DNA of 64,000 bases, from assembly GCA_037974965.1 (NCBI GenBank), contig JBBPFI010000002.1, positions 1,364,001 through 1,428,000 on the forward strand, written 5' to 3'. Source of the stretch: Dacryopinax spathularia. Lineage: Eukaryota > Basidiomycota > Dacrymycetes > Dacrymycetales > Dacrymycetaceae. Below, one piece after another: positions 28,987-61,800 of this stretch (positions are counted from its first letter, which is position 1; each line of letters begins with the position of its first letter). The position numbers were made by a program, and so were the translations under genes. The notes below the pieces were generated by a model. The model saw only the letters and a list, made by a program, of their open reading frames with translations. It did no database searches and was not told where the DNA came from.

Positions 28987-30670
28987 ATGTCTACGGGCGA
29001 AGAAACAAGGGCCGAAAGCAACGTTAATGTGTTGAGGGAACCTCTGACGTTGCCCTGCGGGAAGGTGGTCCCGAACCGACTCGTGAAGGTGCGCCTGTCT
29101 GAGATGAAGACATCAAAGCCGCAGCTGATGATTCGCAGGCAGCCATGTACGAGGCGCTGACCTCGTTTGGGGGTGGCCCGCCCAATGAGCAACATTTTCG
29201 GTTGTACGAGGCATGGTCGAAGGGAGGATGGGGAATGGTGGTTACAGGTGCGGCCTGCAACCCCAATAAGCGCCGGAAGGAAGCTTATGGGCCGTAGGGA
29301 ATCTCTTCGTCGATCCACGTTATCAAGGTGGGCGCACACGTGTTGTACTGTTCGACCCACTTACATGGTATGCAGGACTGGGTCAAGATATGATTGTTCT
29401 ACCCCGTTCCAAGTGGGACGCCTACAGGGTGCTGGCACGATGTGCTAAAGGCCCTAATCCGGGCCCTTCGAGCCCACTTACCCTTGTGCAGATCAACCAC
29501 GCTGGACGCCAGTCCATCCGAGGAAACGCCCGAGCGCCTTGGTCGCCGGCGCTTGCCCCATCGGCTATACCCATGGACTCGAAAGAAGGCTTGATTGCTA
29601 CATTCGCATATAGGGTCGTCTATGGCATCCCGAAGGCAATGACGCAGGCGGAGATCGATCTGGTCGTGAAGCAGTTCACGGAAGCCGCCTTAATGGCGCA
29701 CGAGACGGGTTGGGATGGTGTCGAATTGCATTGCGCTCATGGCTGTGAGTATCACAAGTTACGTCGTGGTGTTGGTAATGAAGACCTCTTAGACCTGCTT
29801 TCGACTTTCCTCTCACCACGGGTACGACCCTCGCTTTTCCTGCCATGCGGCGAGCTCACAGTGCAGCAGACAAATCATCGCACGGACGCCTACGGTGGCA
29901 GCACACGGGCACGGCTGAAGATAGTGCTCGATATCATCGCGGCCATCCGAGCTGCTGTCCCATCGTCCTTTTGCGTGGGCATGAAGATCAACTGCAGAGA
30001 CGTGTCGATGGGCGGGCTGAGTGAAGACGACGTGCTCGAACAAGTCCGACTTCTACACGAACACGGCGGCGTTGACTATATCAACATGAGCGGTGGAACG
30101 TACGAGGAAGTAGGCAAGTCGTGCGGGCTTTCGAAAAGGCTCGCGTGGCTGATTTATTCGAAAGCTTTCTTCGAGGAGTCCGACAAGCCTTTTTTCGAGC
30201 GATCTGCCGCCGCAGCCTCCTCTCTGCTTGCGAATGATCCCAAAGCGCCGCGAATCATGTTGACGGGCGGTTTGAGATCACGGGCACGATGTTCTGAAGT
30301 TATCCACCATAATGCGGCACAGCTATGCGGAATTGCGCGACCTGCAGCCGTCGACCCCAACTTTGCAACAAAACTGCTCGACGAGCGAGTGCCCGACTCG
30401 GAAGCAGTAGCGCCTTCGTACGATATTAAAGCGGGGTCGATCTTCGACGTTATTCCGGTGAAGATAATTGGGGCATCAACTGTCTCGATGTACCACAGCT
30501 TCATGCTCGCTCGCATAGGAAGAAGACAGAAGATCGCTATTGGCACAGGGTTTTGGCCCTTGACATTCTGGCATCTCGTTTACAGTCGCGATTTCTGGAG
30601 AATGCTCGCATTCGTAGTGGGCCTTGCAGTTCTCGGTCGACGAGTGGCGCGGAAAGATAGTAGCAAGTAA
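28987..30670 (+). CDS. Old yellow enzyme family NADH:flavin oxidoreductase with C-terminal membrane anchor
   Basis: Exons 28987-29088, 29139-29247, 29298-29327, 29376-29744, 29793-29821 and 29867-30670 join to 480 residues. This is a TIM-barrel FMN enzyme: CGKVVPNRLVKAAMYE at the N-terminus, GGWGMVVTGNLFVDPRY, QINHAGRQ (FMN/substrate binding), GWDGVELHCAHGY (His active-site region), SPRQTNHRTDAYGGS, FCVGMKINCRD and DYINMSGGTYE. Family members reduce activated alkenes with NAD(P)H. The C-terminal 35 residues contain a hydrophobic helix (MLAFVVGLAVLGRRVARKD), suggesting tail anchoring, probably to ER or outer mitochondrial membrane; yeast OYEs lack this. Substrate is unknown. The Harbinger element ends about 275 bp upstream, so it may have altered this promoter. 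Confidence 0.88.
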
Positions 30671-41614: not shown

Positions 41615-42274
41615 CCCCCCCCCCCCCCCCCCCGGGGCCACTTTTGGTTCCGAGAAGGTCCGTGTCAAAGAGCACAGCCGCTAACAAGGGTCCAGAGTCC
41701 ACTGTCTTTATACTGTTAAATTACTCTCAATTTCATTACTAGCTACTACCGTAATAATGAATATTCTTGCTTTAGGGTAATTAGCTTCAAATGCAATTTA
41801 CTGTGGTTTAAAATGTTAAGAATTGAGTGAAAACAGCGAAGTTTGCATGGGGCTGTTCGCTCAGGAGGACCCTGTACTGTCATTGATGATGAGTCAGCAC
41901 AAGTGCGACCAGTCATCTGTGGTTAAGTCTCACACAAATAATGACCCAGTAAACACACCTACCTAGGTTAGGGTTAGGGGCGAGCAAAGCAAGCGGTAGG
42001 GGATAGGGTTAGGGTTGGGTCGAAGGGGTTAGGGTTAGTTTATAATATTATTTTGTAAAGTAATTAGCATCTATTAGATTGGTAGAGTATATGTCTTTAT
42101 CCAACCGGGCTAAGCCAACTTAGATGGCTGCTAAAAAAAATATCCCGCTGTAAGTTGACTCTTAATGCTGGAAACAATGACATTTAACGCCTTACTTTAG
42201 CTAATAAAATGCTTTTGAACATAATAAGTGCCGGAAGGGCTCTCGGAGCCGAAAGTGGACCCCCGGGGGGGGGG
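41615..42274. mobile_element. Poly-C/poly-G-bounded inverted-repeat element (MITE-like, unclassified)
   Basis: A 660-bp AT-rich block bounded by homopolymers: C19 then GGGGCCACTTTTGGTTCCGAGA on the left (41615-41655), and TCTCGGAGCCGAAAGTGGACCCCC then G10 on the right (42241-42274). Reverse-complementing the right end aligns with the left with one indel and two mismatches, so these are terminal inverted repeats that include the C/G runs. No coding sequence is inside. It contains degenerate telomere-like repeats. No target duplication was recognised. I know no named family with poly-C ends of this kind. Confidence 0.6.
41968..42038 (+). repeat. Interstitial telomere-like TTAGGG repeats
   Basis: Three degenerate clusters of TTAGGG: TTAGGGTTAGGGG at 41968, ATAGGGTTAGGGTTGGG at about 42003, and GGTTAGGGTTAG ending at 42038, with diverged units between. 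TTAGGG is the telomere unit in many filamentous basidiomycetes. Here it lies in the middle of a gene-bearing window, inside the poly-C-bounded element. Confidence 0.8.
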
Positions 42275-42357
42275 AGCTGTGGCGAAGTTCCTTAGATCGT
42301 AGGACCCTTGCACGAAAACAGGGCACGCATTCAGGACGGGGGAAGGACCTACCTCTA

Positions 42358-42370
42358 ACGAGCTAGGTAA
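42358..42370 (+). repeat. ACGAGCTAGGTAA end motif, second copy
   Basis: A 13-bp word shared with 34574-34586, and the inverse of the ACCTAGCTCGT ending of the dispersed repeat copies. Confidence 0.55.
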
Positions 42371-42654
42371 CGCCACAAACCCGAAATGACCGTCAATCAC
42401 TTTTACTTTCTCAAGGCGTAGGGGCGAACAACAAGGTTATGGGATGGAGGATACGCTAGTCTCACCTCCTCTTCGCTAATGTTGGTGTGAAACGATGCCT
42501 CTATCTACGGATGAGGCGATAATCAGCTACATCACAACCTGCTGCCCTCCATCTCCTCGAGGCACAGAACGAGAAGTCCCGCATCTATACCGTCCTTAAT
42601 CCTCCAGCCTCCCCCAAATCCCCAACTCCAATCCACTTCGGCCTCCTGGGAGCA

Positions 42655-42880
42655 TGTAAGGCACGTACCCAAATTGGGTAAGTGCTCTTCCTCATTTAGG
42701 TAGTTTTACGCCCATAAGGCGAAAGGATCTTCTGGATCCGTCTACGTGTACTTTACGCGTTCATGGGCGATTAGCCCTTCTTTTCTTTACTCTCATTAGT
42801 ACACGACAATTGTATTAGATTAATATCTAATTACACTTGTTCTGTGTACTTGTGAGCGAAAGGGCATTAAAGCCCTTTCA
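42655..42880 (+). repeat. 5' LTR
   Basis: 226 bp, TGTAAGG...CTTTCA. It is tiled by nine short hairpins, including 42661-42685 (GCAC+TACCCA stem), 42744-42760, 42814-42831 (7 bp) and 42858-42879 (8 bp, GAAAGGGC/GCCCTTTC). The single difference from the 3' LTR is G at 42769 versus A. Confidence 0.96.
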
Positions 42881-42975
42881 CTTTTTTACACAATTAGTGT
42901 ATCAACGTGTGCTAAAGAGAAGCCCACCCAGAATTTGGGTAAGAAGAGAGATCCGCAAAGTCCGCGAGATCAATC

Positions 42976-45900
42976 ATGTGGAATGGGCCTGGCCCTCCCT
43001 CGCAGCCTGCGGGTTGGGGGACAAGTGCCCAAAGAGCGTTCCTGCAAGGGATGCCATCTAGAGGGTCTAGCACCCCGGGAGAAATCCCAAATGTATGGGA
43101 AAATATCCCTACTCGCTCTCATGCGAGTTCGGCTACTAGCCGGGAAGTTAATCCCAACTCGCTGACTCGAGAAGAGCCAGAAAGTGGTGAGTTCCCACTT
43201 GAGGAAGAGGTCGGGGAGCAAGACGCCCCGACGAATGCTTCCCGCATAGTGGAAGAGCTTCGAGACGAAGCTGGTTGGATCCGGCGAATTGCCGACAATT
43301 ATCAACGTCTGATAGATAGAGATCCGGAAAATGCGGATCAATACGCCCAATTGGCGATACAAGTTGCCTTCCTCCATAGGGAAGATATGAGGAACCGAGC
43401 TGGCGCGGCGTCTAATACGTTCGCCCCTCGCTCGAGATTCAGCTCCTCTGAACATCGTCAGAGCGTCCCACAGTTTGGGCAAAGTACGCCTGCGTCGAGG
43501 CACGCAAGACCCGATTTGGGAGAAGGAGGCTATACGCCGTCCGGAATGGCACAGGCTGAATCTTCAGCCAATGTCCATGTACGAAGAGACATGGCTTCTT
43601 CAATAGCGCGTAACCGCGCAGATGCTACACATGGTAGCGTTCCTTTAATGAGGAACAAGTCCGAATTAGGGACAGGCGCACTTCTGCCCGATACTCCTCT
43701 GAAGAGGATAACCCATTGGGTTGAAGCGGCGAGTGATGATCGCCATTCGACTCATTGGTCTAACCACCCAGGGTTGAAGGTAAAGCACCCGGATGAGCCA
43801 TATGATGGCGAGTCGGATGTCGATAAGTTCGTCGAATTCATCTCAACCCTGGTGAGAATGTTCCGCAATTCGGGAACCATAGGCCCAGAATATGGTGCCT
43901 GGCAAGTTGATGCCATGAGCCAGTACTTGACTGGAGAAGCTTATCGTTGGTTTGAAGCCAACATAGAGCTAGGGGACCTTCCCCGAACGGATTGGACATT
44001 TGCCAAAGTGGTGTGGGGAATGTACCACCGCTTCTTCTCTTCGGAAGAAACGCATAAAGCATATTCTGCTTTTGAAACCCTTAATCAGGGAAGCCTCACT
44101 GTCGAGGCATTGAAAGATAAGTTGAGCGGCATATTAGGCCGAATGCATGAGCGTCCAGGTGACTATGCCGTGCGAAGAAAGTTTCTTCTCGCTCTTCGCG
44201 AGAGCCTTAGGACCAAAATCCTAGAGGGAGGTTATGACCTCGATACTGATCCTTTCAGTGATCTCTATGCGAGAGCGATAGAAATAGAACGCGGCCGAGA
44301 AATGGCTCGCGAGGTAAATGCCTATAGGGCAAAATCCATAGAAGGATCTGGGCTAAATAAGCCCGCAGGGAACAAGTCCGTCCCGAAGCATGATGGTGCG
44401 AAACCATCAGAGCGTACAGATGTACCAAAGACAGTGACCTTCGTCACTTCTTCCCATCGTCAGGGGCGTGAGCATAGCCACAAGAACCCTATTCGGGAAG
44501 CAAGGCGAAGTGCCCCTGCCAAGATCAATAATGGTCGAGCGCCTAATTTAGGCGCGGATAAGCGCCATGATAAGCGCCCAGCCACTAATAGTGGAAATGA
44601 CGGAGTTGTCTGTTATATATGCAGACAGCCCGGTCATTACGCTACCAGTTGTAGCCAGCGTAAAGGAGTACGCGTAGGAGCTACTAGCTCAGCGAACGAG
44701 GATCTTGTCCTCACAGATGATGGCGTACATGCCATTCTTACAGATAGAGAAGCAAATTCTGCTTCACTCGAAACTGTCGAATCCCCTTCCGAAGGAGCGG
44801 AATGCCATGATGATGGCTGGGAGACTGCAGATGAATCATCTGCCGACTCAGATTATGAGGATGATCACCAGGAAATGACTGGGGCGTCTGTGCGCGTCAT
44901 GTCCATACAACCTGTAGGATTACAAGTTGTAAGGGCCGCCGCGGCACATCCATCTTTTACTCCAGATAAGGGAGTTAAGCCAGAAGTATGGCGACATGAC
45001 GGTACTATCCGTCTGGGTAAAAATCAGCCCGTAAGAGACGTAATCACGTCCACTCCAATTGAGTGTTACATCCTCATTGATGGACGACCCGCTTGGGCAC
45101 TGGTAGACAGTGGTGCTGAAATAGACACCATATCTGCCGAGTTCGTCAGAGCGCACAATCTGCGTTTCATTAAGCTGGAATCTCCAGTCGCTCTTCAGCA
45201 AATGAGTCGCGGAAGTCGCACTATAATCCAATATGGGATTAACGCTGAGATTAGCGTGGCGGATCGTAAAGTCGATCATTACTTCGACATTGTCAATATG
45301 GACAAGTATCAAGTGATACTAGGTCTCCCCTTCGGAAGACGCTTTGAGATCATGATAGATCTGGCCCAGAAAGGCATCCTCATAGGAGGACGTGAAGGGA
45401 AATGGATCCCATCCGGAGAACCTCTCTCCAAGGGAATAGAAATCCCTAAGAGCCCTCAATCAGGGAAGAAAAGTTCGAGAATCTCGAAGCCCAAGATAGT
45501 AGTGGGCATGCGTGCCTCTACCAGTATGGGCGCGACTATTAATTCGCCAAATAGGCGAAACCCCACGATATCGGGGCTTAAGTCTTATCCCGAAGCCGAT
45601 CTTCAAGAGATCAGGAATACGCTGATAGCGGAGATAAGTGATCTCACTGGGGATATTCCCCCTGTTCTTCCACCTTTAAGGAAGGTTAATCACAAGATCA
45701 ATTTGATCGATGACAAGGCCATCTATAGGACTAGACGTCCTACTTGTCCCGAAGTACATCGGGAAGAGCTTCATCAGAAGACTCAATGGTATATTACCGC
45801 GGGCTGGTGGGAGCCAGCGCAAACGCAAAACGCGCTTCCCATGCTTTGCATTACAAAGCGAAACGGTAAGTTAAGAACTACCGTAGATTGTCGAGAGAGG

Positions 45901-46080
45901 AACTCGAACACGGTGAAAGATGTCACCCCGATGCCGGATCAAGATGAGATCCGAAGATGGGTTGCTAAACACCCTTTTAGATCCAAATTGGATCTGCGAA
46001 ACGCTTTCGAGATGCTCAGAATAGAGCCAGAAGATGTGTGGAAGACTTCCTTTTCCAAAACCCATTTGGGACCTGCCTAA
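42976..46080 (+). CDS. Retrotransposon Gag-protease-RT (N-terminal part of polyprotein)
   Basis: 1034 codons from the ATG at 42976. Residues 1-260 are disordered, with a charged helical segment. A gag capsid-like domain spans about 270-465 (PYDGESDVDKFVEFIS ... YRWFEANIE ... FFSSEETHKAYSAFETL). A CCHC zinc knuckle sits at about 546-559 (CYICRQPGHYATSC). The aspartic protease has the LVDSGAEIDTIS active site at about 709-720 and LGLPFGRRF near its end. The RT domain begins at about 905 and includes CITKRNGKLRTTVDCRERN and KLDLRNAFEMLRIEPEDVW. The frame closes at 46080, in the middle of RT, while the rest of RT continues in the -1 frame. Gag and Pol are thus fused in one frame, with no gag stop. 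Confidence 0.92.
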   Translation: MWNGPGPPSQPAGWGTSAQRAFLQGMPSRGSSTPGEIPNVWENIPTRSHASSATSREVNPNSLTREEPESGEFPLEEEVGEQDAPTNASRIVEELRDEAGWIRRIADNYQRLIDRDPENADQYAQLAIQVAFLHREDMRNRAGAASNTFAPRSRFSSSEHRQSVPQFGQSTPASRHARPDLGEGGYTPSGMAQAESSANVHVRRDMASSIARNRADATHGSVPLMRNKSELGTGALLPDTPLKRITHWVEAASDDRHSTHWSNHPGLKVKHPDEPYDGESDVDKFVEFISTLVRMFRNSGTIGPEYGAWQVDAMSQYLTGEAYRWFEANIELGDLPRTDWTFAKVVWGMYHRFFSSEETHKAYSAFETLNQGSLTVEALKDKLSGILGRMHERPGDYAVRRKFLLALRESLRTKILEGGYDLDTDPFSDLYARAIEIERGREMAREVNAYRAKSIEGSGLNKPAGNKSVPKHDGAKPSERTDVPKTVTFVTSSHRQGREHSHKNPIREARRSAPAKINNGRAPNLGADKRHDKRPATNSGNDGVVCYICRQPGHYATSCSQRKGVRVGATSSANEDLVLTDDGVHAILTDREANSASLETVESPSEGAECHDDGWETADESSADSDYEDDHQEMTGASVRVMSIQPVGLQVVRAAAAHPSFTPDKGVKPEVWRHDGTIRLGKNQPVRDVITSTPIECYILIDGRPAWALVDSGAEIDTISAEFVRAHNLRFIKLESPVALQQMSRGSRTIIQYGINAEISVADRKVDHYFDIVNMDKYQVILGLPFGRRFEIMIDLAQKGILIGGREGKWIPSGEPLSKGIEIPKSPQSGKKSSRISKPKIVVGMRASTSMGATINSPNRRNPTISGLKSYPEADLQEIRNTLIAEISDLTGDIPPVLPPLRKVNHKINLIDDKAIYRTRRPTCPEVHREELHQKTQWYITAGWWEPAQTQNALPMLCITKRNGKLRTTVDCRERNSNTVKDVTPMPDQDEIRRWVAKHPFRSKLDLRNAFEMLRIEPEDVWKTSFSKTHLGPA

Positions 46081-48896
46081 GTTTGGTAGGGCAACAGGGC
46101 GATTGTAATCTGCCCGCGTCCTTTCAGAGGATGATGATGGATATTCTCCATCCATATTGGATGAGAAAGGTAGTGTGCTACCTTGACGATATTTTCGTCG
46201 TGGGGACTACTCTCGCCGAAGCGATCGACAATCTCCGAATAGTCTTCGGCGTACTTAGAGAGCAAAAGCTCTATCTGTCAGCTGACAAAGTGGACTTATT
46301 GTCCCCGAGTATCGAGTGCCTAGGGCACAAGATTACGGATGACGGCGTGTATGCCGATGATGACAAGATGTCTGTCATTAGAAATGCGGAATTCCCGCAG
46401 GATGCGAAGTCTATGCAACGCTTCCTAGGCATGGTAACTTACCTGTCGCCGTACTTTCCGGACTTGACTAGATATTCTAGTCCTTTATCTGCGCTTACGC
46501 ACATACACAACAAGTTTGTGATTACTCCCATGCACGTCTGGTGCTTCAAGAAGATTCTTGACTTGGCTACGCACTATCCTGTGCTGAAGCCAATAGACCC
46601 AAATAACGGAATTCCCGTTTTCGTCATTGTTGACGCCTCGACTTGCGGGGTAGGTTGTTATTACGGACAAGGTCCGTCTTGGGATAAAGTACATCCCGCT
46701 GGATTTCATTCCAGGAGGTTCACAGACGCGCAGATGGCGTACCCGACCTACCAGCAGGAGCTATTAGCTGTGTTGGAGGCGCTCACCAAGTGGGAGAGTC
46801 AGTTGATAGGAATTCCTATCACTATATGCTCTGATCATGAGCCACTGAAATATCTTCAGTCTAAAGCCAATTTGGCTGGTCCTAGAGTGACTAGAGCGCA
46901 AGAATATTTACAGCGCTTTAATATAGTGAAGATTCTTCACGTACCTGGAGAGCGCAATATTGTTGCGGACTGGATGTCGAGAAGTGAGGGGTATAAAGAC
47001 CCAGTTTCCGCCGATGTGCGGATTGACAAAGATATGGACACTCTATCGTCCGCTCAAATTGCCGAGCTCATTCCCGAAGTGGCAGTCCGTCAAATGACGA
47101 CCCGGTTTAAGGGGAATAAAGTACCCCTTAGGTACAAAAATGATCCGCAAATCGCGGAAGAGGAGAAGCAAGTAGCGTCTCAAAATCGGAGAAATCGTTT
47201 GGAGCCAAGAGCTCGAATCAGCCAGAAGCTGAACTCCGGCGCCCCATACGCCGAACCTGCCGTTGCCGCAGTGGAAGGATCTATTCCTCCCAATACGGCA
47301 TCGGCAGATGCAGAGAATGAAACGGCGGAAATACCGCCAATGGTTGATCAAGACCGATCTTCCGATCCCAAATCGGGATACTTCCCAAGAGGAATGACCG
47401 CTCTGATTCGAGCGATAAAGCATGCCTATTCGGCAGATGTCTTCTACAAGAAGATTAAGGCAATATTGCCTGGATCCAATATTTGGATTGAAGAGGATGA
47501 TCTCCTCAAGTTGAAGCACCCGGAAGGACAACTCGTCCTTTATGTACCAGAGTGTACCTTTCAGGGGAAGCTCCTGAGGCCGAGGCTAATAGCCAATGCT
47601 CATTCGAGCGTAGGACACTTTGGTCCGCGGAAAACATTGGCCTACTTGAGGCATCAGTTCTGGTGGCCGCGGATTTCACGCGAAGTACAGACATTCTGTA
47701 AGGCATGTCCTCTATGCCAAGTGTCGAAAGATTCGACGACTAAGCCATTTGGCTTATTACACTCACTGCCCATCCCGGCTGATCCGTGGAGGGCTATAGC
47801 CATGGATTTCGTGGGACCATTACCCATGAGTAATGGATACGACTATCTATTGATAGTCATCTGTCGGATGTTGACTATGGTACACTTGATACCGTGCATG
47901 ACTTCTTCGTCATCTGCAGATATTGCAGCGAGCTTCCTAAGGGAAGTGGTGCGTTTGCACGGCATGCCGGAAAGCATAGTGTCCGATAGAGACTCGAAGT
48001 TCACTGCCAAATTCTGGCAAGAGTTGCACAAAAAGGCAGGGACAGCGCTTTTGATGTCTACTGCCTTCCATCCCCAAACGGATGGAATAACCGAACGTAT
48101 GGTTCGGACTGTGACGCAAATTCTGCGAACGGTCGTAAATGATGACCAAACAGATTGGTGTAATCGTCTCCCCATGGTGGAGTACGCAATCAATGCGAGT
48201 ACCAGTACGAGTACGGGCTTTAGCCCTTTCGAACTGGTTTACGGTCATATACCGCCCTTGACTAGAATAGTCAAACACTCAGAATCTGAGTTCCGCGGAG
48301 TAGATCGCTTCCTTCAAGCAGCGCGATATAATGTATGCATCGCAACTGATGCGATTATTGAAGCCCGAGTTGATCAGGGTGTACACGCTAATAAGCGTAG
48401 ACAGGAATCACCTGCATTCCAGATAGGTGACAAAGTATATTTGTCTACACGGAACTTGTCCGTACCTAAAGGGCGTGTAGCCAAGTTGATGCCCCGCTAT
48501 GTGGGACCTTTTGACATCGTCAAAGTGACGGACACAGACAATTGTCTGCTAGACTTACCGCAGAGTATGCGTGATCGGAGAATTCATCCGACCTTCCATT
48601 CTAGCCTACTTAGGCCTTACGTCAAAAATGACGAAATGATCTATCCAGATCGTGACCCCGACACTGTGTTTGGGGATGTTCCGGATGGGGAACAGTACGT
48701 GGAGGTGATAGATGATCACCGATGGCAGCACAATAAGCTGCAGTTCCACTTCGTTTGGTCCGACGGAGACCAAACGTGGGAAACGGCTGATAAAGCCGAT
48801 AGATTAGTCCAGTTGGACGAGTACCTTGCTCTGCAAGGAGTCCAGGATATGGACGAACTCCCAAAATTAGGGGGGAAGGGACGTGATGCCCAATGA
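46038..48896 (+). CDS. Retrotransposon Pol continuation: RT-RNase H-integrase-chromodomain-like
   Basis: 952 codons in the -1 frame relative to the upstream ORF, overlapping it by 43 nt. The first in-frame ATG here is probably not a real start; this is the distal part of Pol. RT: QQGDCNLPASFQRM and catalytic YLDD at about residue 48. RNase H: FVIVDASTCGVGCYYG, YQQELLAVLEALTKWE, ICSDHEPLKYL. Integrase: HHCC zinc domain at about 520-565 (HSSVGHFGPRKT ... CPLCQVSK), catalytic core with DFVG, SDRDSKF and the Glu of GITERMV. The C-terminus VEVIDDHRWQHNKLQFHFVW-x-DGDQTWE reads as a chromodomain-like module, placing the element near chromoviruses. It stops at TGA 48894-48896, overlapping the ATG of the next ORF. 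Confidence 0.92.
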   Translation: MEDFLFQNPFGTCLSLVGQQGDCNLPASFQRMMMDILHPYWMRKVVCYLDDIFVVGTTLAEAIDNLRIVFGVLREQKLYLSADKVDLLSPSIECLGHKITDDGVYADDDKMSVIRNAEFPQDAKSMQRFLGMVTYLSPYFPDLTRYSSPLSALTHIHNKFVITPMHVWCFKKILDLATHYPVLKPIDPNNGIPVFVIVDASTCGVGCYYGQGPSWDKVHPAGFHSRRFTDAQMAYPTYQQELLAVLEALTKWESQLIGIPITICSDHEPLKYLQSKANLAGPRVTRAQEYLQRFNIVKILHVPGERNIVADWMSRSEGYKDPVSADVRIDKDMDTLSSAQIAELIPEVAVRQMTTRFKGNKVPLRYKNDPQIAEEEKQVASQNRRNRLEPRARISQKLNSGAPYAEPAVAAVEGSIPPNTASADAENETAEIPPMVDQDRSSDPKSGYFPRGMTALIRAIKHAYSADVFYKKIKAILPGSNIWIEEDDLLKLKHPEGQLVLYVPECTFQGKLLRPRLIANAHSSVGHFGPRKTLAYLRHQFWWPRISREVQTFCKACPLCQVSKDSTTKPFGLLHSLPIPADPWRAIAMDFVGPLPMSNGYDYLLIVICRMLTMVHLIPCMTSSSSADIAASFLREVVRLHGMPESIVSDRDSKFTAKFWQELHKKAGTALLMSTAFHPQTDGITERMVRTVTQILRTVVNDDQTDWCNRLPMVEYAINASTSTSTGFSPFELVYGHIPPLTRIVKHSESEFRGVDRFLQAARYNVCIATDAIIEARVDQGVHANKRRQESPAFQIGDKVYLSTRNLSVPKGRVAKLMPRYVGPFDIVKVTDTDNCLLDLPQSMRDRRIHPTFHSSLLRPYVKNDEMIYPDRDPDTVFGDVPDGEQYVEVIDDHRWQHNKLQFHFVWSDGDQTWETADKADRLVQLDEYLALQGVQDMDELPKLGGKGRDAQ

Positions 48897-51475
48897 GATT
48901 GATAATAATCTCATTAATGAAAGTCGCGCCAATAGCGCGTCGAGGACACGATGTATGCGCGTCTCGCGTAAGCACGTGCCAAGCTAAGGACCCTATTTGG
49001 GCCATCACGTGTCAAGGGCAGTGCAGACCCTTTGATAGGCCTAATCTGCTCCCGTGGTCTCGGACGGAGGCATTTCGTCCAGCGTTAATTACGCGCTCGA
49101 GGAGACAATCTCTCCCTCATACCATCATTTGCACCTCATCGGTGTATGACAGTCAATTGCTGTCAATGTCGTCTGACAAGGTCGGCCCTCCTAAGGTCAA
49201 GAAAGCAGTGGCCCGCAGGGTTAAAGCGAACAGTGTCGCTAATAGCGACAATAACGCACTTGGCGTTGTACTAAGTGGAGAGTCGTCCACGACGCCTTCA
49301 TTATCGAGTGCGACAAAGTCTGTCGCGGACTCTCAAGTCCACATCCCACCTGCGGATGACGAAGTCTACATCCCACCTCCTGAGGAGATGGATGTTGACT
49401 ACGTTCCTCCTACTTCGGCAGAATCTGCTGAGCCAGCTCAAGAAGCTAATCCGGTTGCGAACGCTCCGGACCCAACGACTACCGAGTCGGATGAGGCAAA
49501 TTCTGCCTCTCGTATCACAACTTCCGCCGACTTGGCGTTAGCCGCTGTGACTTTGAGCGTGACCCCGTCCGCCCAGGATCCAACGACGCTATCTGCTTCT
49601 TCAAGCATGGAGTTGGTTCTTCACCCCAGCTCAAGCGAATTGCTCAACTCGGCGAGTAGCCTGGAGGATTCTCCTTATATGCCTCCCAGGTTCGGGAGAA
49701 GGGACTTCACCCTTGATGATGGCCTTCCCGAGTGGAAGACCATGTACTCCCATGATCCAAGGACTCGGATCGAAGGCGAGCGGCGAAATGCCGAAATGAT
49801 GGCAAAAGCCAATGTTGACGACTTGATCGACGAAATAATTGGGCTACAGAGGGCCCAGCGGAGCCTTTATCCGCAAATCGATTCCCTGCAAAGGGAACTT
49901 TCCCACCAAAAGTTGGTACACTCGGATCTTAGATCGAGTTATGTACTACGGCTCCAAAATCTGGAGGCAAAGTCCAAATCGGACTCGGAAAACTTGTCCA
50001 ACGTGCTCGCCGCAAATGTGGTGTCGCAACAGACTATTGCGAGTCTCCAGACCGCCCTTAATGAGGAGCGTGCACGGAGCGAGAAGCATCGCAATAGCTC
50101 TGACCACTGGTACGACAAGTACGAGGCCGTGAAGGCCGAATTGCACAAGAGTCAACGTGACGTGCGCAGTCTTAATCAGACTATTGACGAGCTCCGTGAT
50201 GAAAACAAGGAGCTTCATTGTCGATTAGACAGGATATCCGCTACTTCAGCAACTCGCCCATCTTCCGGGCCTACCGAAAAGACTGCTGGCAAGCGCCCAG
50301 CTATGGACGAATTGCCCTCTGCTCCTCCTCGGAAGCTGGTTTCCCCTCGAGTGGACGACGTCCCCATGGGTGAAGTGGAGGAATTCCCTCCTTTGCCTGA
50401 GACCTATTCAAAGGTCGCGAGGATTCCTTCCCCTCCTGCTGCTCTCGCCGCAATTAGCGGACCTTCGTCTAGCGGACCATCTGTCCGTAAAAGGGATATT
50501 ACTCCCATCCCTACCAGCGTTCCTGGGTTCACTCCCATGGGCAAAAGTAAACCCCCGCACATGCCGGGAGCTCCAGTCGTTATCCCGAAATGGGAGGATC
50601 AACGTGATCCATGGAGAGGGATAGTGGACCCCAAAGTCCTCAAAGCCATTTGGCAAGAGCAACGTGCTCGATGGACGGCTCTTGTAGCCAACGCGGATAC
50701 CAAGTTCCCGGAGGGATCTCCAGCGCGGAACTCTCCGCTATTCCAGGCTTATATCAAGCTGATTAGCAAGAAGTCCCCTGAGGAAAACAATCCGCACCGT
50801 CATAAGGGGCCAGGCGTACGCCGTTCTCCAGATGGGAGATACTATGTCCCAGATTTGGACACGTATCAAAAGATACAAACAATGGCTCCATCAGCCCCGC
50901 TATTCTCGACTTCTTTAGTCAGGAACTTCCACCATATGTTGGAAACCGAAATCTTCACTTCGAAGGGAAGTTTCCGCAAACTGGTGATGCAATACGGAGT
51001 TGCCACCGACTTGGTCCCCAACCGTCGTTGGAATTGGAGCGACTCGCTCGCGGTGGACAAAAAGTCCTGGGACCTGCTTAAGGTCCTTCGCGGACTAATT
51101 GTCCTCGGCGTTGGCCCAACAGTGGCTGACGAAGAACTCGTGCCGTACTTCGAACGGCGGCGTAATAAAATGGCGAATGGCCATTTCCTGAACGCGGAGC
51201 AAGCCGCTGAATTACCGGCGACTCTCGCTGATGGACGTCCAGCTTGGACGCAGCCGTACTTAACGGCGTTACCAGCTTCTTTGCGGCCGAGCGGAACGGC
51301 TGCCCCCGGTGCCCCAACCGGATATGTTCCTCCATTATTTGGAGATCTCAAAGTAGATGATTGGGACGATGATGTCAGCATAAGTCAGGGGGATTCCCCT
51401 TCAGCGCCATATTCTGGCACTCCCCAGTATGAGGAACGGTCGTCTGACTTTGATGACTTACCTTATGATGGCTAG
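48893..51475 (+). CDS. Third retrotransposon ORF of unknown function (860 codons)
   Basis: Open from the ATG at 48893, which shares ATGA with the Pol stop, to 51475, 14 bp before the polypurine tract. Residues 1-91 look like untranslated sequence; a better start may be the ATG at 49166 (MSSDKVGPPKVKKAVARR), giving 769 residues. From there: an acidic Pro/Ser-rich region with VYIPPPEEMDVDYVPP repeats; a strong coiled coil at about 215-365; a Pro-rich linker; then a globular-looking region (WEDQRDPWRGIVDPKVLKAIWQEQRARW to VGPTVADEELVPYFERRR); and an acidic tail. There is no signal peptide or membrane helix, so it is not env-like. No protease, nuclease or knuckle motif is visible. It may be a second structural or nucleoprotein-type protein, or a captured host gene. 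I do not recognise the family. Confidence 0.85.
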   Translation: MRLIIISLMKVAPIARRGHDVCASRVSTCQAKDPIWAITCQGQCRPFDRPNLLPWSRTEAFRPALITRSRRQSLPHTIICTSSVYDSQLLSMSSDKVGPPKVKKAVARRVKANSVANSDNNALGVVLSGESSTTPSLSSATKSVADSQVHIPPADDEVYIPPPEEMDVDYVPPTSAESAEPAQEANPVANAPDPTTTESDEANSASRITTSADLALAAVTLSVTPSAQDPTTLSASSSMELVLHPSSSELLNSASSLEDSPYMPPRFGRRDFTLDDGLPEWKTMYSHDPRTRIEGERRNAEMMAKANVDDLIDEIIGLQRAQRSLYPQIDSLQRELSHQKLVHSDLRSSYVLRLQNLEAKSKSDSENLSNVLAANVVSQQTIASLQTALNEERARSEKHRNSSDHWYDKYEAVKAELHKSQRDVRSLNQTIDELRDENKELHCRLDRISATSATRPSSGPTEKTAGKRPAMDELPSAPPRKLVSPRVDDVPMGEVEEFPPLPETYSKVARIPSPPAALAAISGPSSSGPSVRKRDITPIPTSVPGFTPMGKSKPPHMPGAPVVIPKWEDQRDPWRGIVDPKVLKAIWQEQRARWTALVANADTKFPEGSPARNSPLFQAYIKLISKKSPEENNPHRHKGPGVRRSPDGRYYVPDLDTYQKIQTMAPSAPLFSTSLVRNFHHMLETEIFTSKGSFRKLVMQYGVATDLVPNRRWNWSDSLAVDKKSWDLLKVLRGLIVLGVGPTVADEELVPYFERRRNKMANGHFLNAEQAAELPATLADGRPAWTQPYLTALPASLRPSGTAAPGAPTGYVPPLFGDLKVDDWDDDVSISQGDSPSAPYSGTPQYEERSSDFDDLPYDG

Positions 51476-51489
51476 ACACCTGTTCTAGC

Positions 51490-51498
51490 GGGGGAGGG
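51490..51498 (+). other. Polypurine tract (plus-strand primer)
   Basis: GGGGGAGGG directly abutting the 3' LTR, as expected for plus-strand DNA priming. Confidence 0.85.
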
Positions 51499-51724
51499 TG
51501 TAAGGCACGTACCCAAATTGGGTAAGTGCTCTTCCTCATTTAGGTAGTTTTACGCCCATAAGGCGAAAGGATCTTCTGGATCCGTCTACGTGTACTTTAC
51601 GCGTTCATGGGCAATTAGCCCTTCTTTTCTTTACTCTCATTAGTACACGACAATTGTATTAGATTAATATCTAATTACACTTGTTCTGTGTACTTGTGAG
51701 CGAAAGGGCATTAAAGCCCTTTCA
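51499..51724 (+). repeat. 3' LTR
   Basis: 226 bp, differing from the 5' LTR at one position by eye. The difference falls in the loop, not the stem, of the GGGC(n)attaGCCC hairpin. It is followed by the GAGCA target duplication at 51725-51729. Confidence 0.96.
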
Positions 51725-53013
51725 GAGCAGCCGCAATTGCACCCGCGGCGCTCATCAACCTCGCCCGCCGCTGCCGCGATGCCGTCGTCTCTGTCGTAGG
51801 CGCGAGGAGCCCGGAGAGGGTGCAGGAGTTCGCCAAGAAGCATGGAGTTCCCCGGGCGGTAGATGGGTATCAGGCTGTTTTGGGTGATGAGGAGGTCGAG
51901 GCGATCTACAACCCTGTACGTCCCCTCTCTCCACTCCCTCGCAGAGAGCGTGGAACAGGATACTGATGCGGGTGTGTTGGCACGATAGTTGCCCAATGGA
52001 CTGCACTATGAGTGGACTGTTCGAGCTCTGGAAGCGGGGAAACACGTGCTACTCGAGAAGCCTGCGACCTGTACCGCGAAGGAGTGCGACGAGCTTTTCG
52101 CTCTGGCGGAGAAGAAGGGGCTGGTCCTCCTGGAAGCCGTTCATTATCAGTGCGTCTTCAAGCTCGCGCGCAGCTGAGAGGGGCTGATCTGAGTCTTCTG
52201 GAATGTAGATTCCACCCCGCTCCCCAGCGACTCAAACACTTGATCACCTCGAGAGAGCTAGGCTTCCTCAAGAAGATCACAGCCCGTCTCGCTGCTCCAG
52301 CAGAGTTCGTCCCGCCTGGAGATATCCGTTTCCAGTACGCACTCGGTGGTGGAGCGGCCATGGACGTAGGCTGCTACGTGATCTCCGTTTCCCGTTGATT
52401 AGTGGGGAGGGAGCCGAGTGAGGTCCTGCGGGCCGAACCTGTGCTGCAGGATGCGGAAAGCGAGCCGAAGGTGGATTGGAGGATGGAGTTCACCTTCAAG
52501 TTTCCTGCTAATGAGGGTGAGGCAGAGGAGGAGGGTGTGACGGCAGCATGCATGGGCGATCTAGGCCTGCCATGGTGGGGCCCACTCGGCCTTAAACCGC
52601 CCATGCCGATCATGGACGTCACTGCCTCCTGCGAGCAGGGCGAAATAACGATGCAAGGCTTCGTAGGACCCACCTGGTATCACTCTATCACCATTCGTGG
52701 TCCGCAAGGAAGAGGGTGGAGAAACGGTATACCTTTTTACCTGGTGAAGGACCGGAGGAGGCGGAGCAAAGAGGGGAGGAATGGTGGAGTACTTACCGGC
52801 ATCAGCTGCAGGCTTTCGTGGATCGGATCAAAGGAAGGAAGCCGCAGCACTGGATCACTCCGGAGGAGGGCGTGGCGAATATGAGAGCCATTGAAATGGT
52901 TTACGAGAAGGTGAGTTTGCTGTTCACTAGCCCATGGTTGACCTTTGTGCTGATGCTAGTTGTAGTCCGGGTTCGGTGCGAGACCTGCTTCCGATTTCAA
53001 ATTCTCCGGTTGA

Positions 53014-53633: not shown

Positions 53634-55000
53634 ATGACGATCCTCACCCGCGCCTGGTCCGTCTTCCACCCCTCCCAACCGCCCAAATCCGACAGTCCAA
53701 TCCGATTCGGCATCTTGGGCGCCGCTGCCATAGCGCCTATAGCGCTCATCCTGCCTGCTCGGAATTGTCCAGATGCGGTGGTGACTGTTGTTGGTGCTAG
53801 GAGCCTGGAGAGGGCCAAGGCGTATGCGAAGAAACATGGGATCCCGAGGGCTGTGGAGGGGTATGATGCCGTCTTGGACGATCCGGAGGTCGATGCGGTC
53901 TATAACCCTGTGTGTCCCTGCGCCTTGAATAGTATGGGCAGTGAAGGCTGACGTTGGATATCTCAGCTTCCGAATGGACTGCATTATGAATGGACGATGA
54001 AAGCGCTCCTGAAGGGGAAACATGTGTTGCTTGAGAAACCCGCTACGGACACGGCAGAGGAATGCGAGCGGATCTTCGCTCTCGCCAAACGCAAGAACCT
54101 TGTTGTGCTTGAAGCATTTCACTACCGGCATGCTACCGCCTTCTTCCTAGCTTACTACAAGGCTGACCCTACGTGCATGTATGCAGGTTTCACCCCGCCA
54201 TCCAGAGGCTCAAGGCGATCCTGGAGTCTGGCGAGCTGGGGGAGCTCAAGGCTATCAAAGCGACGCTCGCCGTCCCGCGCGGGTTCATACCGCCCAATGA
54301 TATCCGGTTCGACCTCTCCCTCGGCGGCGGAGCAGGCATGGACATGGGCTGCTATGTGACCAGTGTCAGTCGGTTCATCGCTGGACGGGAACCGACGGAG
54401 GTGAGGGAGGCGAAGGCGGTGATCGAAAATCCGGAGAAGGAGCCAAAGGTCGATCGGAGGATGGAGTTCACCTACGTCTTCCCTCCTGCTGCTGGGCAGG
54501 CGGAACCGGTGCCAGCGGAATGCACGTGCGACCTCGGACTGCCCGGCTGGGGCCCGTTCGGCCTAATTCCCTCTTTTGTGGATGCGACCGTCACCGTTAC
54601 CTGCACGCAGGGAACAGCGTCACTACGGAACTTCGTCGCGCCCGTCTTCTTGCACTGGCTGACCATCAAGGGCCCTAAAGGCAGCCGGACGGAGCGCGCA
54701 TATACGTGGGGAAAGGAGGGGAAGGAGAAAGGGTGGAAGGGCGAGTACGGCTGGAGTACTTATCGGTTCCAGCTCGAGGCGTTTGTGGATAAGCTGAAGG
54801 GGAGGGCGCCGCAGCATTGGATTGAGGGTGAGGAGAGTGTGGCGAATATGAGGTGTTTGGAGATGATTTATGAGAAGGTGCGTGGACTCGATCTAGCAGG
54901 AGAACCTTTGCTGACGAGATACGCTTGCTAGTCGGGATTGGGTGTGAGGCCTGCGTCGAGTTTCAAGATTCCAGATGAGGAAGCTGCTGGAGGAGCATAA
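53634..55000 (+). CDS. Gfo/Idh/MocA-family oxidoreductase (dihydrodiol/xylose dehydrogenase-like), intact copy 2
   Basis: Exons 53634-53909, 53967-54127, 54187-54877 and 54932-55000 join to 398 residues. The N-terminal Rossmann fold has IRFGILGAAAIAPIAL (nucleotide-binding loop) and VVTVVGARS. The GKHVLLEKPAT block carries the family's EKP motif, whose Lys is catalytic. The C-terminal domain includes the GGGAGMDMGCYV stretch, typical of NADP-dependent dihydrodiol dehydrogenase/D-xylose 1-dehydrogenase relatives. The substrate is probably a sugar or trans-dihydrodiol, which cannot be decided here. The second intron appears to use a GC donor (54128-54129) with an AG acceptor at 54185-54186; the pseudogene copy has GT at the same place. 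This is the tandem duplicate of the disrupted gene upstream, so function may be retained through this copy. Confidence 0.9.
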
Positions 55001-58836: not shown

Positions 58837-61800
58837 ATGCCACCCTCAACAGCCGGCCCCGTCCTAACCTCCCATCCCCTCTCCCGCCCACCCTCAGTGC
58901 CAGCCTTAACCCGGTACACCTCCAAGCCCCGAATGGCGCCCCTCGCCCCAGCCGGCCCATCCGCCCCAGCGCCAGCAATCAAGTCCTCCCCTCCACCCCC
59001 CGTACCCGCCAAAGATCCCCCCGCCGCCTCCGCCCCAACAACCGCCGCCCCAGCAAACGGGCAACAAGCAGCAGCTCCAACCCGCAAACACAAGTCCAAA
59101 TCCGAATTCCGCGACCCGCCCAAAACGGTCCTAGACCGGGCCTCGGGCGAGGCGTATCAGGTGATTTCGGTCTTGGGGCAGGGCGGGTTCGCGCGGGTTT
59201 ATGAGGCGAGGGACTCGAAGGGGCGGAGTTTGGCGTTGAAGGTTATCAATAAGGGGAAGTTGGCGGATACGAAGGCTAGGACTAGGGTGCGTCCTGCTTC
59301 CTCTCCTCTGTTCCTGTTGTTCCTCTTCTCCTCTCTTTTCCTCTGTGCTCTTGTACTCTTGCGAGAGGTCAGAGGAGGAGAGGAAGGAGGAGGGCCGATA
59401 TTGGGATCATGGGCTGACGCGATGGATAGTTGTATGCGGAGATCAAGATCCACCGAGCGCTAAACCACCCGCATGTGTGCGCGTTCGGGGACTGTTTTGA
59501 GGATGGCGAGAATGTGTATATCACGCTGGAGCTGTGTCGTGCCGGGGTGAGTCCTTCCCTCTGTTCCTCTCACCCGCTCTTCCTTCCCCTTTCCCCTGCC
59601 TTCGCCACCTCGCTCGCGCCATCTACCGATATCGGAGTCGTGTCGTGCTAACACCCCTCCCTCCCAGTCCCTCATGGACTTCGTCCGCAAACGCGCCCGC
59701 CTAACCGAGCCCGAAGTCCGTCTCTACATGGTTCAACTCAGCGGGGCGATCCGCTACCTGCACACGCACCAAATAATCCACCGCGACCTCAAGCTCGGCA
59801 ACCTCTTCCTGGACGACCGGCTCGAGCTCAAGGTCGGCGATTTCGGGCTCGCTGCGTTATTGGAGAGGGAGGGCGAGAGGAAGACGACTATTTGCGGGAC
59901 GCCGAATTATATTGCGCCTGAGGTACTGTTTGCGAGTAAGACGATGGGACATAGTTATGAGGTTGATATTTGGAGCATGGGGGTGATTATGTGCGTCGCA
60001 GCGCCGCCCTCCTCTTCATAGGCTTGCAGTCGTCCTTCCTTCCTGGGGCTGACAAGGGTGGTGCAGGTTCACGATGCTCACGGGCAAACCGCCTTTCCAA
60101 ACAGACAAAGTCGAAGACATCTACAGGTACGCCCCTCCTACCTCTACCCGTACACCCCTCTTCTCCTCTTCTCCTCTTGCCTCTTGCATCTCGCCACTCG
60201 GCCATGGTTGGGCGATTGAGGCTTACGTTCTGTGGCTAGACGCATCCGAGATAGCAAGTACGAGTTCCCGACGACGTTTGAGATTTCGCCGAGTGCGAAG
60301 AATTTGGTGCAGAAGCTGTTGAGTCAGAAGCCTGGTGCGTGCCGCTCTATCTACATTCACCCATCTGCCTTCCTCCCTGTCTTTTCGCTTGCTGTAACCA
60401 TCCTTTGTTGCTCCCACCTCTGCTCTTCACGCCTCGAACCCCTCCTTCTAGTCGAGAAAAGCCGCTGACTCGCGTTCCTTCGTGGTGCTGCAGAGGACCG
60501 CCCCACCCCGCAAAACCTCCTCTCCCACCCCTTCTTCACCGAGGGCCATTGCCCACTCTGGATGTCCCAAGTCTCGCGCACGCACGCCCCAACCTACACA
60601 CCGCAAGAACAGCTCAAGTCCGCGCAAAACCTGCGCGCTCTCCGCAAGAGAGCGCAGATCGACGAAGTCGGCTCGATCCGCGTCAGGCGGGAGGGCGTCC
60701 TAGCGCCCTCCTCTACAAACAATTCCCAAGTCGCCGACTCGACCACCGCCTCTGAAGGGGCCAAGAAAGCCCAGGAACAGCAGCAAGCCGCCGCCAGAGC
60801 GTGGGAAGCCGGAGAGAGAGAGTTCGAGCAAGCCGTCAATGTCGGCTCGCCCATCTCTGCGCTGCTGAAGAGCGCCAAACAGCCGCTGGTCGTAGCGGGA
60901 GAACTGCCAGCGGAGAACCTGATGCGGAAGTTGAGCGTGCAGGCTCTGTCCGCCAACGCTAATCGGAAGGGCAAGGAGCAGCAGCAGCAGCAGGAGAAAG
61001 CCTCTATCGGTGCGGGAGGGAGGGGAGCCGGAGGGAGGGGAAAAACGCTCAGGAGCGTGGACGAGGAGGTTAGGGCGAGTCCCAAAGCTGGACGAGCGAT
61101 GTCACTTCGCCGCACCACTGCGCGTGAGCGCGATTCCAGCGAGTCGGAGAACGTCCCTCCCATTCATGGCTCGACCCGCACACGTCCAGCTTCAGCCTCT
61201 GCTGCTACCACAGGAGCGGGAGGAGCAACAGGGGGGAAAAGCGCCTTGCCTGTCCTTTCCCGTGGGCCGAGCCAGACGGGGTTGAACAGGCAGGGTAGCC
61301 AGTCTGGCCTTTCCCGGCAAGCGAGTCAAGGGCAAGGGCAGCAGAGAGACGTGAGGCAATCTGTTCAGGCTCGGCTTGCCAGTGCTGCTGCTGCTAAGAG
61401 GCAGGAGGCTGTTGCTGCTGTTGCTCTTGCGGATGCGGATGAGGGGGACGATACTGAGGTTGAGGAAGGCAGGGAGAGAGCTGGGAAGGGGGAGAAGGAA
61501 GGGAGGGGGAACACGTTTGATAGGACGGCGAGGGTGTTGAATGATGCTTTTGAGGCTAAGGGGGAGGGGAGAGTTTGGAGGGATCCTGGTGCGTCCTCTC
61601 TCTGTCCCTCTCTCGCTCCTTTCTCTGCGGCTCGCGCTGCCCAATTCCTACCACACCGTTCTACTTTTTCGTAATGATTCCGCGATGTACTGACTCTGAC
61701 TATGGGAACAGAACTCGAAGCGGACCTTCCTGGTAAAGTCGTCTTTGTCCAGAGCTGGGTTGATTATTCGCACAAGTATGGCATGGGGTATGCGCTTACG

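What the first reader, a model, noticed from the sequence alone, without database searches (positions are those of the whole stretch)
42655..51724. A retrotransposon tiled end to end with short perfect hairpins
Seen directly: the 226-bp LTR holds nine adjacent inverted repeats covering most of its length (42661-42685, 42709-42721, 42725-42739, 42744-42760, 42765-42777, 42806-42813, 42814-42831, 42832-42848, 42858-42879). Coding parts show the same. The 255 nt from 48600 to 48855 hold eleven non-overlapping hairpins (48604-48615, 48620-48633, 48638-48651, 48678-48693, 48704-48720, 48725-48741, 48752-48776 with a 9-bp stem, 48784-48798, 48807-48818, 48824-48838, 48840-48854). Others checked: 47817-47836 and 47841-47858 (7-bp stems), 49234-49250, 49253-49267, 49275-49290, 49310-49326. 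For 5-bp stems with loops of 2-7 nt, random sequence predicts about 1.5 in 255 nt; roughly ten are seen. A quick look at host exons (53634-53900, 60980-61170) found one or two per 200-270 nt. Coding sequence has thus been shaped at nucleotide level. Inferred possibilities: genome-wide RNA structure for packaging, stability or RNAi evasion, or a copying mechanism that creates palindromes.
Basis: partly seen in the sequence, partly recalled or inferred. Interest (0 to 1): 0.92.

Follow-up and report, generated by a model that had tools for sequence, protein, structure and literature searches.

The report
Retrotransposon coded as tiny hairpins
A family of jumping genes in a fungal genome, probably of the jelly-fungus kind, appears to have chosen its synonymous codons so that the element is a string of short, self-contained hairpins, a kind of genome-wide folding known from some RNA viruses.

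Summary
Short perfect hairpins (stem >=5, loop 3-9) occur at 27/kb in the element and 5.7/kb in the rest of the window, with sharp edges at the LTRs. Codon-preserving shuffles give z=16.3, 11.6 and 9.2 for the three ORFs. It marks one Ty3/gypsy clade: all 13 Pol loci of 8 elements carry 26-30/kb, while 17 loci of other Ty3 lineages and 7 Copia loci carry 3-10/kb. Positions turn over but density stays; hairpins come and go mostly by single-base changes; enrichment follows hairpin stability. So selection, not a palindrome-making copying process, most likely maintains it, though the per-hairpin signal is modest. Folding-energy excess (21-27%) exceeds the 15% published for SARS-CoV-2 but not MS2/Qbeta as computed here, and is packed into more short hairpins than in those phages. 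It resembles genome-scale ordered RNA structure; ten literature searches listed no such retrotransposon. Its job (Gag packaging/compaction, RNAi shielding) and the strand that folds (RNA or cDNA) are unresolved. The element also encodes an orphan third ORF.

The parts
42650..42654 (.). left target-site duplication GAGCA
   Evidence: identical 5 bp at 51725-51729
42655..42880 (+). 5' LTR, 226 bp, TG...CA; 6 hairpins (26.5/kb)
   Evidence: one difference in 226 from the 3' LTR; hairpins
42976..46080 (+). ORF1: Gag (Ty3_capsid 43789-44145, CCHC zinc knuckle 44608-44658), aspartic protease 45058-45387, start of RT; 100 hairpins in 42976-46059
   Evidence: Pfam; ORF; shuffles z 16.3
46038..48896 (+). 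ORF2, other frame: rest of RT 46074-46334, RNase H 46614-46919, integrase H2C2 47574-47732, integrase core 47796-48074 (below its cut-off), Tf2-1-like SH3 48426-48623
   Evidence: Pfam; shuffles z 11.6
48893..51475 (+). ORF3, 860 aa, orphan; predicted long helices (residues 289-451, coiled-coil-like) and a small helical stretch (about 580-632)
   Evidence: none of the 8000 scored candidates reached E<=0.001; no Pfam hit at E<=0.001; in this genome matched only in this clade; poor model, mean pLDDT 44; shuffles z 9.2
42655..51724 (.). the hairpin array: 248 perfect hairpins (stem >=5, loop 3-9) counted in 42656-51724, non-overlapping ones covering 38% of the element
51488..51498 (+). purine-rich tract before the 3' LTR (probable polypurine tract)
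   Evidence: sequence read; role inferred
51499..51724 (+). 3' LTR, 226 bp
51725..51729 (.). right target-site duplication GAGCA

Best explanation
This is a recently inserted Ty3/gypsy LTR retrotransposon of a fungal clade whose whole sequence, coding and LTR, is under selection to be a dense string of short, local, Watson-Crick stem-loops (about 5 bp, loop 3-7) when single-stranded. Shown: the array, its independence of codon usage and protein, its restriction to the clade among the elements examined in this genome, its dependence on predicted hairpin stability, its maintenance despite turnover of positions. Inferred: the single strand that matters is the genomic RNA; selection acts weakly on each of about 250 hairpins, so they come and go by point mutation while density stays. 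Most likely job (inferred, weakest step): the stem-loops are repeated low-affinity sites that Gag (or the orphan ORF3 protein) uses to compact and package the RNA, as proposed for dispersed packaging signals of RNA viruses; this would fit the loop preferences that differ between families.
For: Codon-preserving shuffles z 9-16. Density 26.2-30.0/kb in 13 of 13 Pol loci of the clade (L005-L017, pieces of 8 elements), 2.8-8.7/kb in 17 of 17 fetched loci of other Ty3 lineages and 5.1-9.9/kb in 7 of 7 Copia loci. Exact stems of 3 bp 0.95x, 4 bp 1.35x, 5 bp 3.4x, 6 bp 4.3x of expectation in A. Enrichment follows predicted folding energy: A 3.9-5.6x at -4 to -8 kcal/mol, B 5.6-6.2x at -5 to -7, both lower below -8; C rises to 7.8x below -10. 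Third-position identity is only 0.34-0.43 between families yet density is kept. Differences that alter the hairpin set are fewer than neutral in 6 of 6 clade pairs (ratios 0.71-0.85; A-C11 p=0.016, C5-C4 0.0099, C5-C16 0.021, C16-C3 0.035, C3-C4 0.21, C16-C9 0.58; C pairs overlap), 1.12 and 0.93 in two control pairs. MFED against dinucleotide shuffles 21, 27 and 23% for A, B, C versus -7, 6 and 1% in three other Ty3 elements. The same local signature, weaker, is in coding parts of the RNA phages MS2 and Qbeta (1.7-1.8x) and absent from four genes of the ssDNA phage phiX174 (0.68x). Loop preferences differ by family: A has A at loop position 2 in 54% and T at position 4 in 74% of 70 five-base loops; B prefers 3-4-base loops, often T-N-A.
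Against: No sign that G.U counts as a pair: one-mismatch stems are enriched 1.26x for G.U but 2.05x for A.C (p=0.0004), and G.U is 0.70x at the outer helix end; in MS2 and Qbeta the test does not favour G.U either, so it is a weak test. Sense and antisense gain alike in 11 of 12 comparisons (the twelfth favours the antisense), and DNA energy parameters give larger z than RNA ones in 11 of 12. Synonymous rates in stems and outside are equal in C pol (0.0130 vs 0.0138; loops 0.0481). The polarised gain/loss signal (gains 25 vs 16.7, losses 36 vs 56.1 of 177) rests on copy C5, whose polarity is uncertain; the other four copies give 4 gains and 20 losses of 66, against about 6 and 21 expected. Two-sided Watson-Crick changes are not clearly commoner than in slid controls. 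No Gag or ORF3 binding was tested. The A loop motif is nearly its own reverse complement. RNA folding in cells was not measured.
Confidence: 0.48

Rival explanations
1. The hairpins shield the RNA: each stretch pairs with itself fast and locally, so that siRNA-loaded Argonaute or antisense RNA cannot anneal (RNAi evasion, or prevention of sense-antisense duplexes). No protein partner is needed.
For: The host genome has matches above cut-off to the Piwi, RdRP and Dicer_dimer families (whether the genes are intact was not checked). Strand symmetry of the energies and near-symmetric loop motifs fit a need for both strands to fold. Mainly local hairpins are favoured. Positions do not matter. A shielding role is proposed for GORS in the coronavirus paper (PMC7642675, abstract and passages).
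Against: Does not predict loop-sequence preferences that differ by family nor the lower enrichment of the most stable hairpins in A and B. The other Ty3 and the Copia elements examined live in the same genome without it.
Confidence: 0.27
2. The folding that matters is in single-stranded minus-strand cDNA inside the particle (for example compaction, protection, or control of plus-strand synthesis).
For: A.C in the sense strand is G.T in the minus strand, and it is tolerated more than G.U in all three families; among stem singletons of family C 21 gave A.C and 10 gave G.U; DNA energy parameters separate native from shuffled better than RNA ones in 11 of 12 comparisons.
Against: A.A is enriched as much as A.C, so a preference for unpaired A explains part of it; in the pair A-C11 one-sided changes to G.U and A.C are 25 and 22 (summed); four genes of phiX174, an ssDNA genome, have no such excess.
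Confidence: 0.13
3. A mutational process makes palindromes: template switching or fold-back copying by the element's reverse transcriptase turns quasi-palindromes into perfect ones, without selection.
For: Stems are strictly Watson-Crick, without a G.U preference; among the elements examined it is restricted to one RT lineage. In family C right arms look more diverged than left ones in three of four comparisons.
Against: 27 of 32 polymorphic hairpins differ by one base; A and B arms show no consistent direction of change; enrichment depends on G+C and energy and is about 1x for stems of 3 bp or five-pair stems with 0-1 G-C pairs; hairpin-changing differences are rarer, not commoner, than neutral.
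Confidence: 0.06
4. By-product of base composition or codon usage.
For: G+C of the element (0.49-0.54) is a little lower than in most of the window.
Against: Codon-preserving shuffles, no excess of >=5-bp stems at loops of 10-60, other retroelements of similar G+C without it.
Confidence: 0.01

Closest known systems
[quoted passage not shown] abstract and passages seen)
   Same: Hundreds of consecutive energetically favoured stem-loops over the whole genome, excess folding energy against shuffles, positions and pairings poorly conserved between relatives. MFED here 21-27% against about 15% for SARS-CoV-2 and a maximum of 23.4% (a deltacoronavirus) in that paper.
   Different: Here it is an LTR retrotransposon in a fungal genome; the structure sits in very short perfect hairpins, in A and B in a stability window; shuffling and fragment settings are not identical to the paper's.
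RNA phages MS2 and Qbeta (genomes fetched)
   Same: Excess of the same short hairpins (1.72x, 1.80x) and strong folding (MFED 29 and 31% by my calculation).
   Different: The phages have 10.6-12.4 such hairpins/kb, the elements 27-29/kb; the phages reach a higher total folding excess with fewer of them.
Dispersed packaging signals of RNA viruses (review PMC6281560; abstract and outline seen)
   Same: Many stem-loops along a genome, with family-typical loop features.
   Different: No capsid binding was shown here; the loop motif of A covers under half of five-base loops (40 of 93 have A and T at positions 2 and 4).
Ty3/gypsy retrotransposons; Ty1/Ty3 RNA packaging (PMC4974528; passages seen)
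   Same: Gag with CCHC, protease, RT, RNase H, integrase order; LTRs; 5-bp TSD.
   Different: That 2016 review says that the structure of Ty3 RNA was uncharacterised and describes a structured 5' end of Ty1 RNA; an array over the whole element and an orphan ORF3 are not in the passages seen.

Membership tests
Ty3/gypsy LTR retrotransposon | LTRs with TG...CA and target-site duplication | tested here: met
   226-bp LTRs, one difference, TSD GAGCA
Ty3/gypsy LTR retrotransposon | Gag-PR-RT-RNaseH-IN order | tested here: met
   Pfam order in ORF1 and ORF2
Genome-scale ordered RNA structure | folding energy excess over shuffles along the whole genome | tested here: met
   MFED 21, 27, 23% for A, B, C (codon-preserving shuffles 18, 23, 20%); z -9.5 to -17.7 in all six coding segments tested, both strands and both parameter sets
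Genome-scale ordered RNA structure | consecutive stem-loops, positions not conserved between relatives | tested here: met
   15 of 75 exact coincidences A/B, roughly what density and homology predict
Genome-scale ordered RNA structure | the RNA folds so in the cell | not testable with these tools
   needs SHAPE/DMS
Genome-scale ordered RNA structure | genome of a positive-strand RNA virus | tested here: not met
   DNA-integrated LTR retrotransposon; so it works like GORS rather than being a viral GORS case
Dispersed packaging signals | stem-loops share a recognition motif | tested here: inconclusive
   A: loop A at position 2 and T at position 4; B and C differ
Dispersed packaging signals | motif bound by the capsid protein | not testable with these tools
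   no binding data
Dispersed packaging signals | effect on assembly or packaging | not testable with these tools
   needs experiments

The most novel reading that the evidence does not exclude
A retrotransposon clade has coded its entire genome as an array of about 250 short hairpins with a family-specific stability range and family-specific loops, read by an element-encoded protein (Gag or the orphan ORF3), or acting on both RNA and cDNA strands: a whole-genome structural code co-evolving with its own binding protein in an LTR retroelement, without a precedent in the listings of the ten literature searches made here.
Probability: 0.27. Interest if true: 0.88.

Novelty: new variant of a known kind. 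Interest (0 to 1): 0.77.

Why it matters
Genome-wide stem-loop tiling is known to me as a virus phenomenon whose purpose is disputed. Here it sits in one retrotransposon clade next to related elements of the same genome that lack it, with several copies, RNAi-family genes in the host and a non-virus system. That makes the old question (packaging, immune or RNAi shielding, or replication) testable by synonymous recoding in a harmless system, and suggests that retroelements too can carry a dense structural layer on top of their codons.

Tried and rejected
Chance, composition and codon usage: rejected. Palindrome-making copying: not supported. Strict positional conservation of hairpins: rejected; the apparent excess of coincident hairpins (15 vs 1.1 for shifted controls) shrinks to 15 vs 5.5 with a null that keeps codon-to-codon substitution, about the ratio of overall density (in the other eight comparisons 2.2-4.6x against 2.0-3.4x for density). 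Two-sided Watson-Crick changes: 18 of 58 for A->B against 26 of 79 in slid controls, 26 of 54 against 33 of 77 for B->A. Strand assignment by wobble pairs: I first read the A.C excess as pointing to the minus strand, then saw that unpaired-A preference explains part of it and that MS2/Qbeta do not favour G.U either: left open. The first gain/loss test looked strong, but the signal sits in copy C5 of uncertain polarity, so I rely on the unpolarised test. The control family's first expectation was computed on one copy only and gave a false excess of losses; corrected per copy.

Searches that led nowhere: viral contigs with ORF2 of the window and of C18 and genome contigs with the C16 integrase part found no relative; Pol hits in the protein collection are at most 39% identical among the 89 listed; ORF3 has none among 8000 scored candidates; Rfam none in 42000-52300. 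ORF3 structure prediction was of low confidence and no fold search was made. Only 30 of the 93 Pol matches became loci, so more distant Ty3 lineages of the genome (below 35% identity to this Pol) were not examined. Ten literature searches (three of them returned nothing) showed, in the titles and abstract starts listed, no paper on hairpin tiling of a retrotransposon; subscription papers and preprints are not held.
Full report
WHAT IS THERE. The window lies in an unnamed 29.2-Mb genome of 24 contigs. A host oxidoreductase in the window (29390-30670) has its three best matches, 59-61% identity, in Calocera and Dacryopinax, so the host is probably a Dacrymycetes-like basidiomycete (inference from one gene). 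At 42655-51724 sits an LTR retrotransposon: LTRs of 226 bp with one difference, TSD GAGCA, Ty3-type Gag, zinc knuckle, protease, RT, RNase H, integrase and Tf2-1-like SH3 domain, and a third ORF of 860 aa without a relative found that in this genome was matched only in this clade. The insertion interrupts a Gfo/Idh/MocA-type gene. The window copy is broken inside RT: ORF1 and ORF2 lie in different frames, while the C18 element and the C family read through that region in one frame; the C11 copy (LTRs with 2 differences in 227) is instead interrupted by a stop codon nearby.

THE HAIRPINS. Perfect hairpins with stem >=5 and loop 3-9 number 248 in 9069 nt, 27.3/kb, against 5.7/kb in the rest of the window; non-overlapping ones cover 38% of the element and 9% of the host part. 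The excess begins and ends at the LTRs and is also in the LTR (26.5/kb). A 1342-bp insertion in ORF3 of the C11 copy, an internal control, has 3.7/kb. Codon-preserving shuffles give 24.4, 21.8 and 17.7 expected hairpins against 100, 76 and 56. For stems >=5 the effect is confined to loops of 1-9; longer-range stems (>=6 bp, loops 10-60) are 1.2-1.4 times expectation. Loop 0 is not enriched in A, as expected of hairpins with a real loop.

WHO HAS IT. Three families, here A (window and C11), B (C18, about 70% amino-acid identity in Pol) and C (C16, C9, C4, C5, C3, 62%), have it: 26.2-30.0/kb in 13 of 13 Pol loci L005-L017 (8 elements); clade loci that include flanks or inserts (L001-L004, L035-L040) have 11-25/kb. 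The 17 loci of other Ty3 lineages fetched (L018-L034) have 2.8-8.7/kb and shuffles of six of them give z -0.9 to 0.5. Seven Copia loci have 5.1-9.9/kb. B's LTRs are 230 bp and identical, and beyond them the density falls to near background. Shuffled controls for four B and C pieces give z 6.7 to 14.2 (those pieces were shuffled in the unturned strand, with stops in frame; repeated in the right strand with z about 22).

WHAT IS SELECTED. Exact stems of three pairs show no excess, four pairs 1.35x, five 3.4x, six 4.3x in A; B is similar (6 pairs 7.3x), C weaker at five (2.2x) and 11-16x at seven to eight pairs. Five-pair stems with three or four G-C pairs are enriched 3.0-7.4x in the three families, those with one or none 1.4x or less. 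By predicted energy the enrichment starts near -3 kcal/mol in A and B and near -5 in C, is highest at -4 to -8 (A) or -5 to -7 (B) and lower below -8, while in C it rises to 7.8x below -10. Neighbouring hairpins tend to abut (centre distances of 15-25 nt are commonest). Loop preferences differ: A favours five-base loops with A at position 2 and T at position 4 (AATTC is flanked by a >=5-bp stem in 6 of 12 occurrences), B three- and four-base loops, often T-N-A, C is broader. Loops are A- and T-rich in all three.

HOW IT EVOLVES. Between A, B and C 3-15 hairpins sit at exactly the same place (15 of 75 for A/B, 10 of 46, 3 of 31, 8 of 52 and 6 of 38 for the other pairs of pieces), roughly what density and homology predict, although some shared ones carry compensatory pair swaps; 3rd-position identity is 0.34-0.43. 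So positions turn over while density is kept, which needs an active cause. The five C copies diverged under protein constraint (dN/dS 0.02-0.16 in ten pairs over one pol piece). In their pol, 27 of 32 polymorphic hairpins differ by one base. Differences that change the hairpin set are 0.71-0.85 of the neutral expectation in 6 of 6 clade pairs (overlapping comparisons within C; A-C11 49 vs 64.5, p=0.016; C5-C4 57 vs 74.6, p=0.0099) and 1.12 and 0.93 in two pairs of a control Ty3 family. Results against strong selection on single hairpins: synonymous rates in stems equal those outside, and the polarised gain/loss signal (gains 25 vs 16.7, losses 36 vs 56.1 of 177; control family 58 vs 53.2 and 50 vs 54.0 of 953) disappears without copy C5 (4 and 20 of 66). 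I read this as weak selection on each of very many interchangeable hairpins.

WHICH STRAND. Local folding energies exceed shuffles alike on both strands in 11 of 12 comparisons (one C piece with DNA parameters favours the antisense), and z is larger with DNA than with RNA parameters in 11 of 12. G.U is not used as a substitute pair; A.C (G.T of the minus strand) is tolerated more (146 vs 71.3 expected, against 85 vs 67.7 for G.U; p=0.0004), and G.U is rare at helix ends (0.70x outside). But MS2 and Qbeta, true RNA genomes, do not favour G.U in this test either (14/14 and 14/13 G.U/A.C), and A is preferred in unpaired places. The strand is therefore open; genomic RNA is the simplest choice because coding parts of phiX174, a single-stranded DNA genome, lack the excess and the RNA phages have it.

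COMPARISON WITH THE KNOWN. The closest known phenomenon is genome-scale ordered RNA structure. The coronavirus paper PMC7642675 (abstract and passages) reports several hundred consecutive stem-loops, poor conservation of positions, MFED about 15% for SARS-CoV-2 and 23.4% as its maximum. With 351-base fragments and dinucleotide shuffles I get 21.0% (A), 27.4% (B), 22.8% (C), 29.2% (MS2), 31.1% (Qbeta), and -6.8, 5.5 and 1.0% for three other Ty3 elements; with codon-preserving shuffles 18.4, 23.3, 19.9, 25.7, 27.7 and -5.0, 9.2, 6.3%; settings differ from the paper's. The elements differ from the two phages in packing their structure into short perfect hairpins (27-29/kb against 10.6-12.4/kb). 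Whether the array serves packaging by Gag, as dispersed packaging signals are proposed to do (PMC6281560, abstract), or shields the RNA from the host's RNAi (Piwi, RdRP and Dicer_dimer family matches) cannot be decided here. Family-specific loops and stability ranges tip me slightly towards a protein reader, hence packaging.

VERDICT. Observation confirmed; interpretation partly supported; a new variant of a known kind, with a clear experimental route.

Noticed in passing
42650-42654 and 51725-51729, gene on both sides: The element sits inside the reading frame of a Gfo/Idh/MocA-type oxidoreductase gene; joining the flanks with one target copy gives an open frame. This copy of the gene is disrupted by a recent insertion (one LTR difference in 226).
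   Followed up: partly
48893-51475; L038 1222-3462; L040 1096-2241; L043 1708-2724: Orphan ORF3, 27-30% identical between the window copy and the B and C pieces, with long helices predicted in A and conserved downstream stretches; its start overlaps the stop of ORF2 in the window copy.
   Followed up: partly
46038-46080: The window copy's pol is split into two frames inside RT; the C11 copy is broken differently.
   Followed up: partly
42881-42920: No TGG-type tRNA primer-binding site (motif recalled) directly follows the 5' LTR, and no complement of 7 or more bases of the first 25 bases after it is in the LTR, so the priming mode is unclear.
   Followed up: partly
C11 987259-988601 (L036, L037): A 1342-bp insertion in ORF3 of the C11 copy lacks hairpins (3.7/kb), an internal control.
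   Followed up: partly
27119-28531, minus strand: A 471-aa ORF with a DDE_Tnp_4 transposase domain; kinship to Harbinger-type transposons is recalled, not tested.
   Followed up: no
five C-family copies, pol pieces: Hairpin loops in family C change about 3.5 times faster at synonymous sites than stems or the rest (12 of 249 sites vs 11 of 849 and 26 of 1880); not seen in A vs C11 (all sites).
   Followed up: partly
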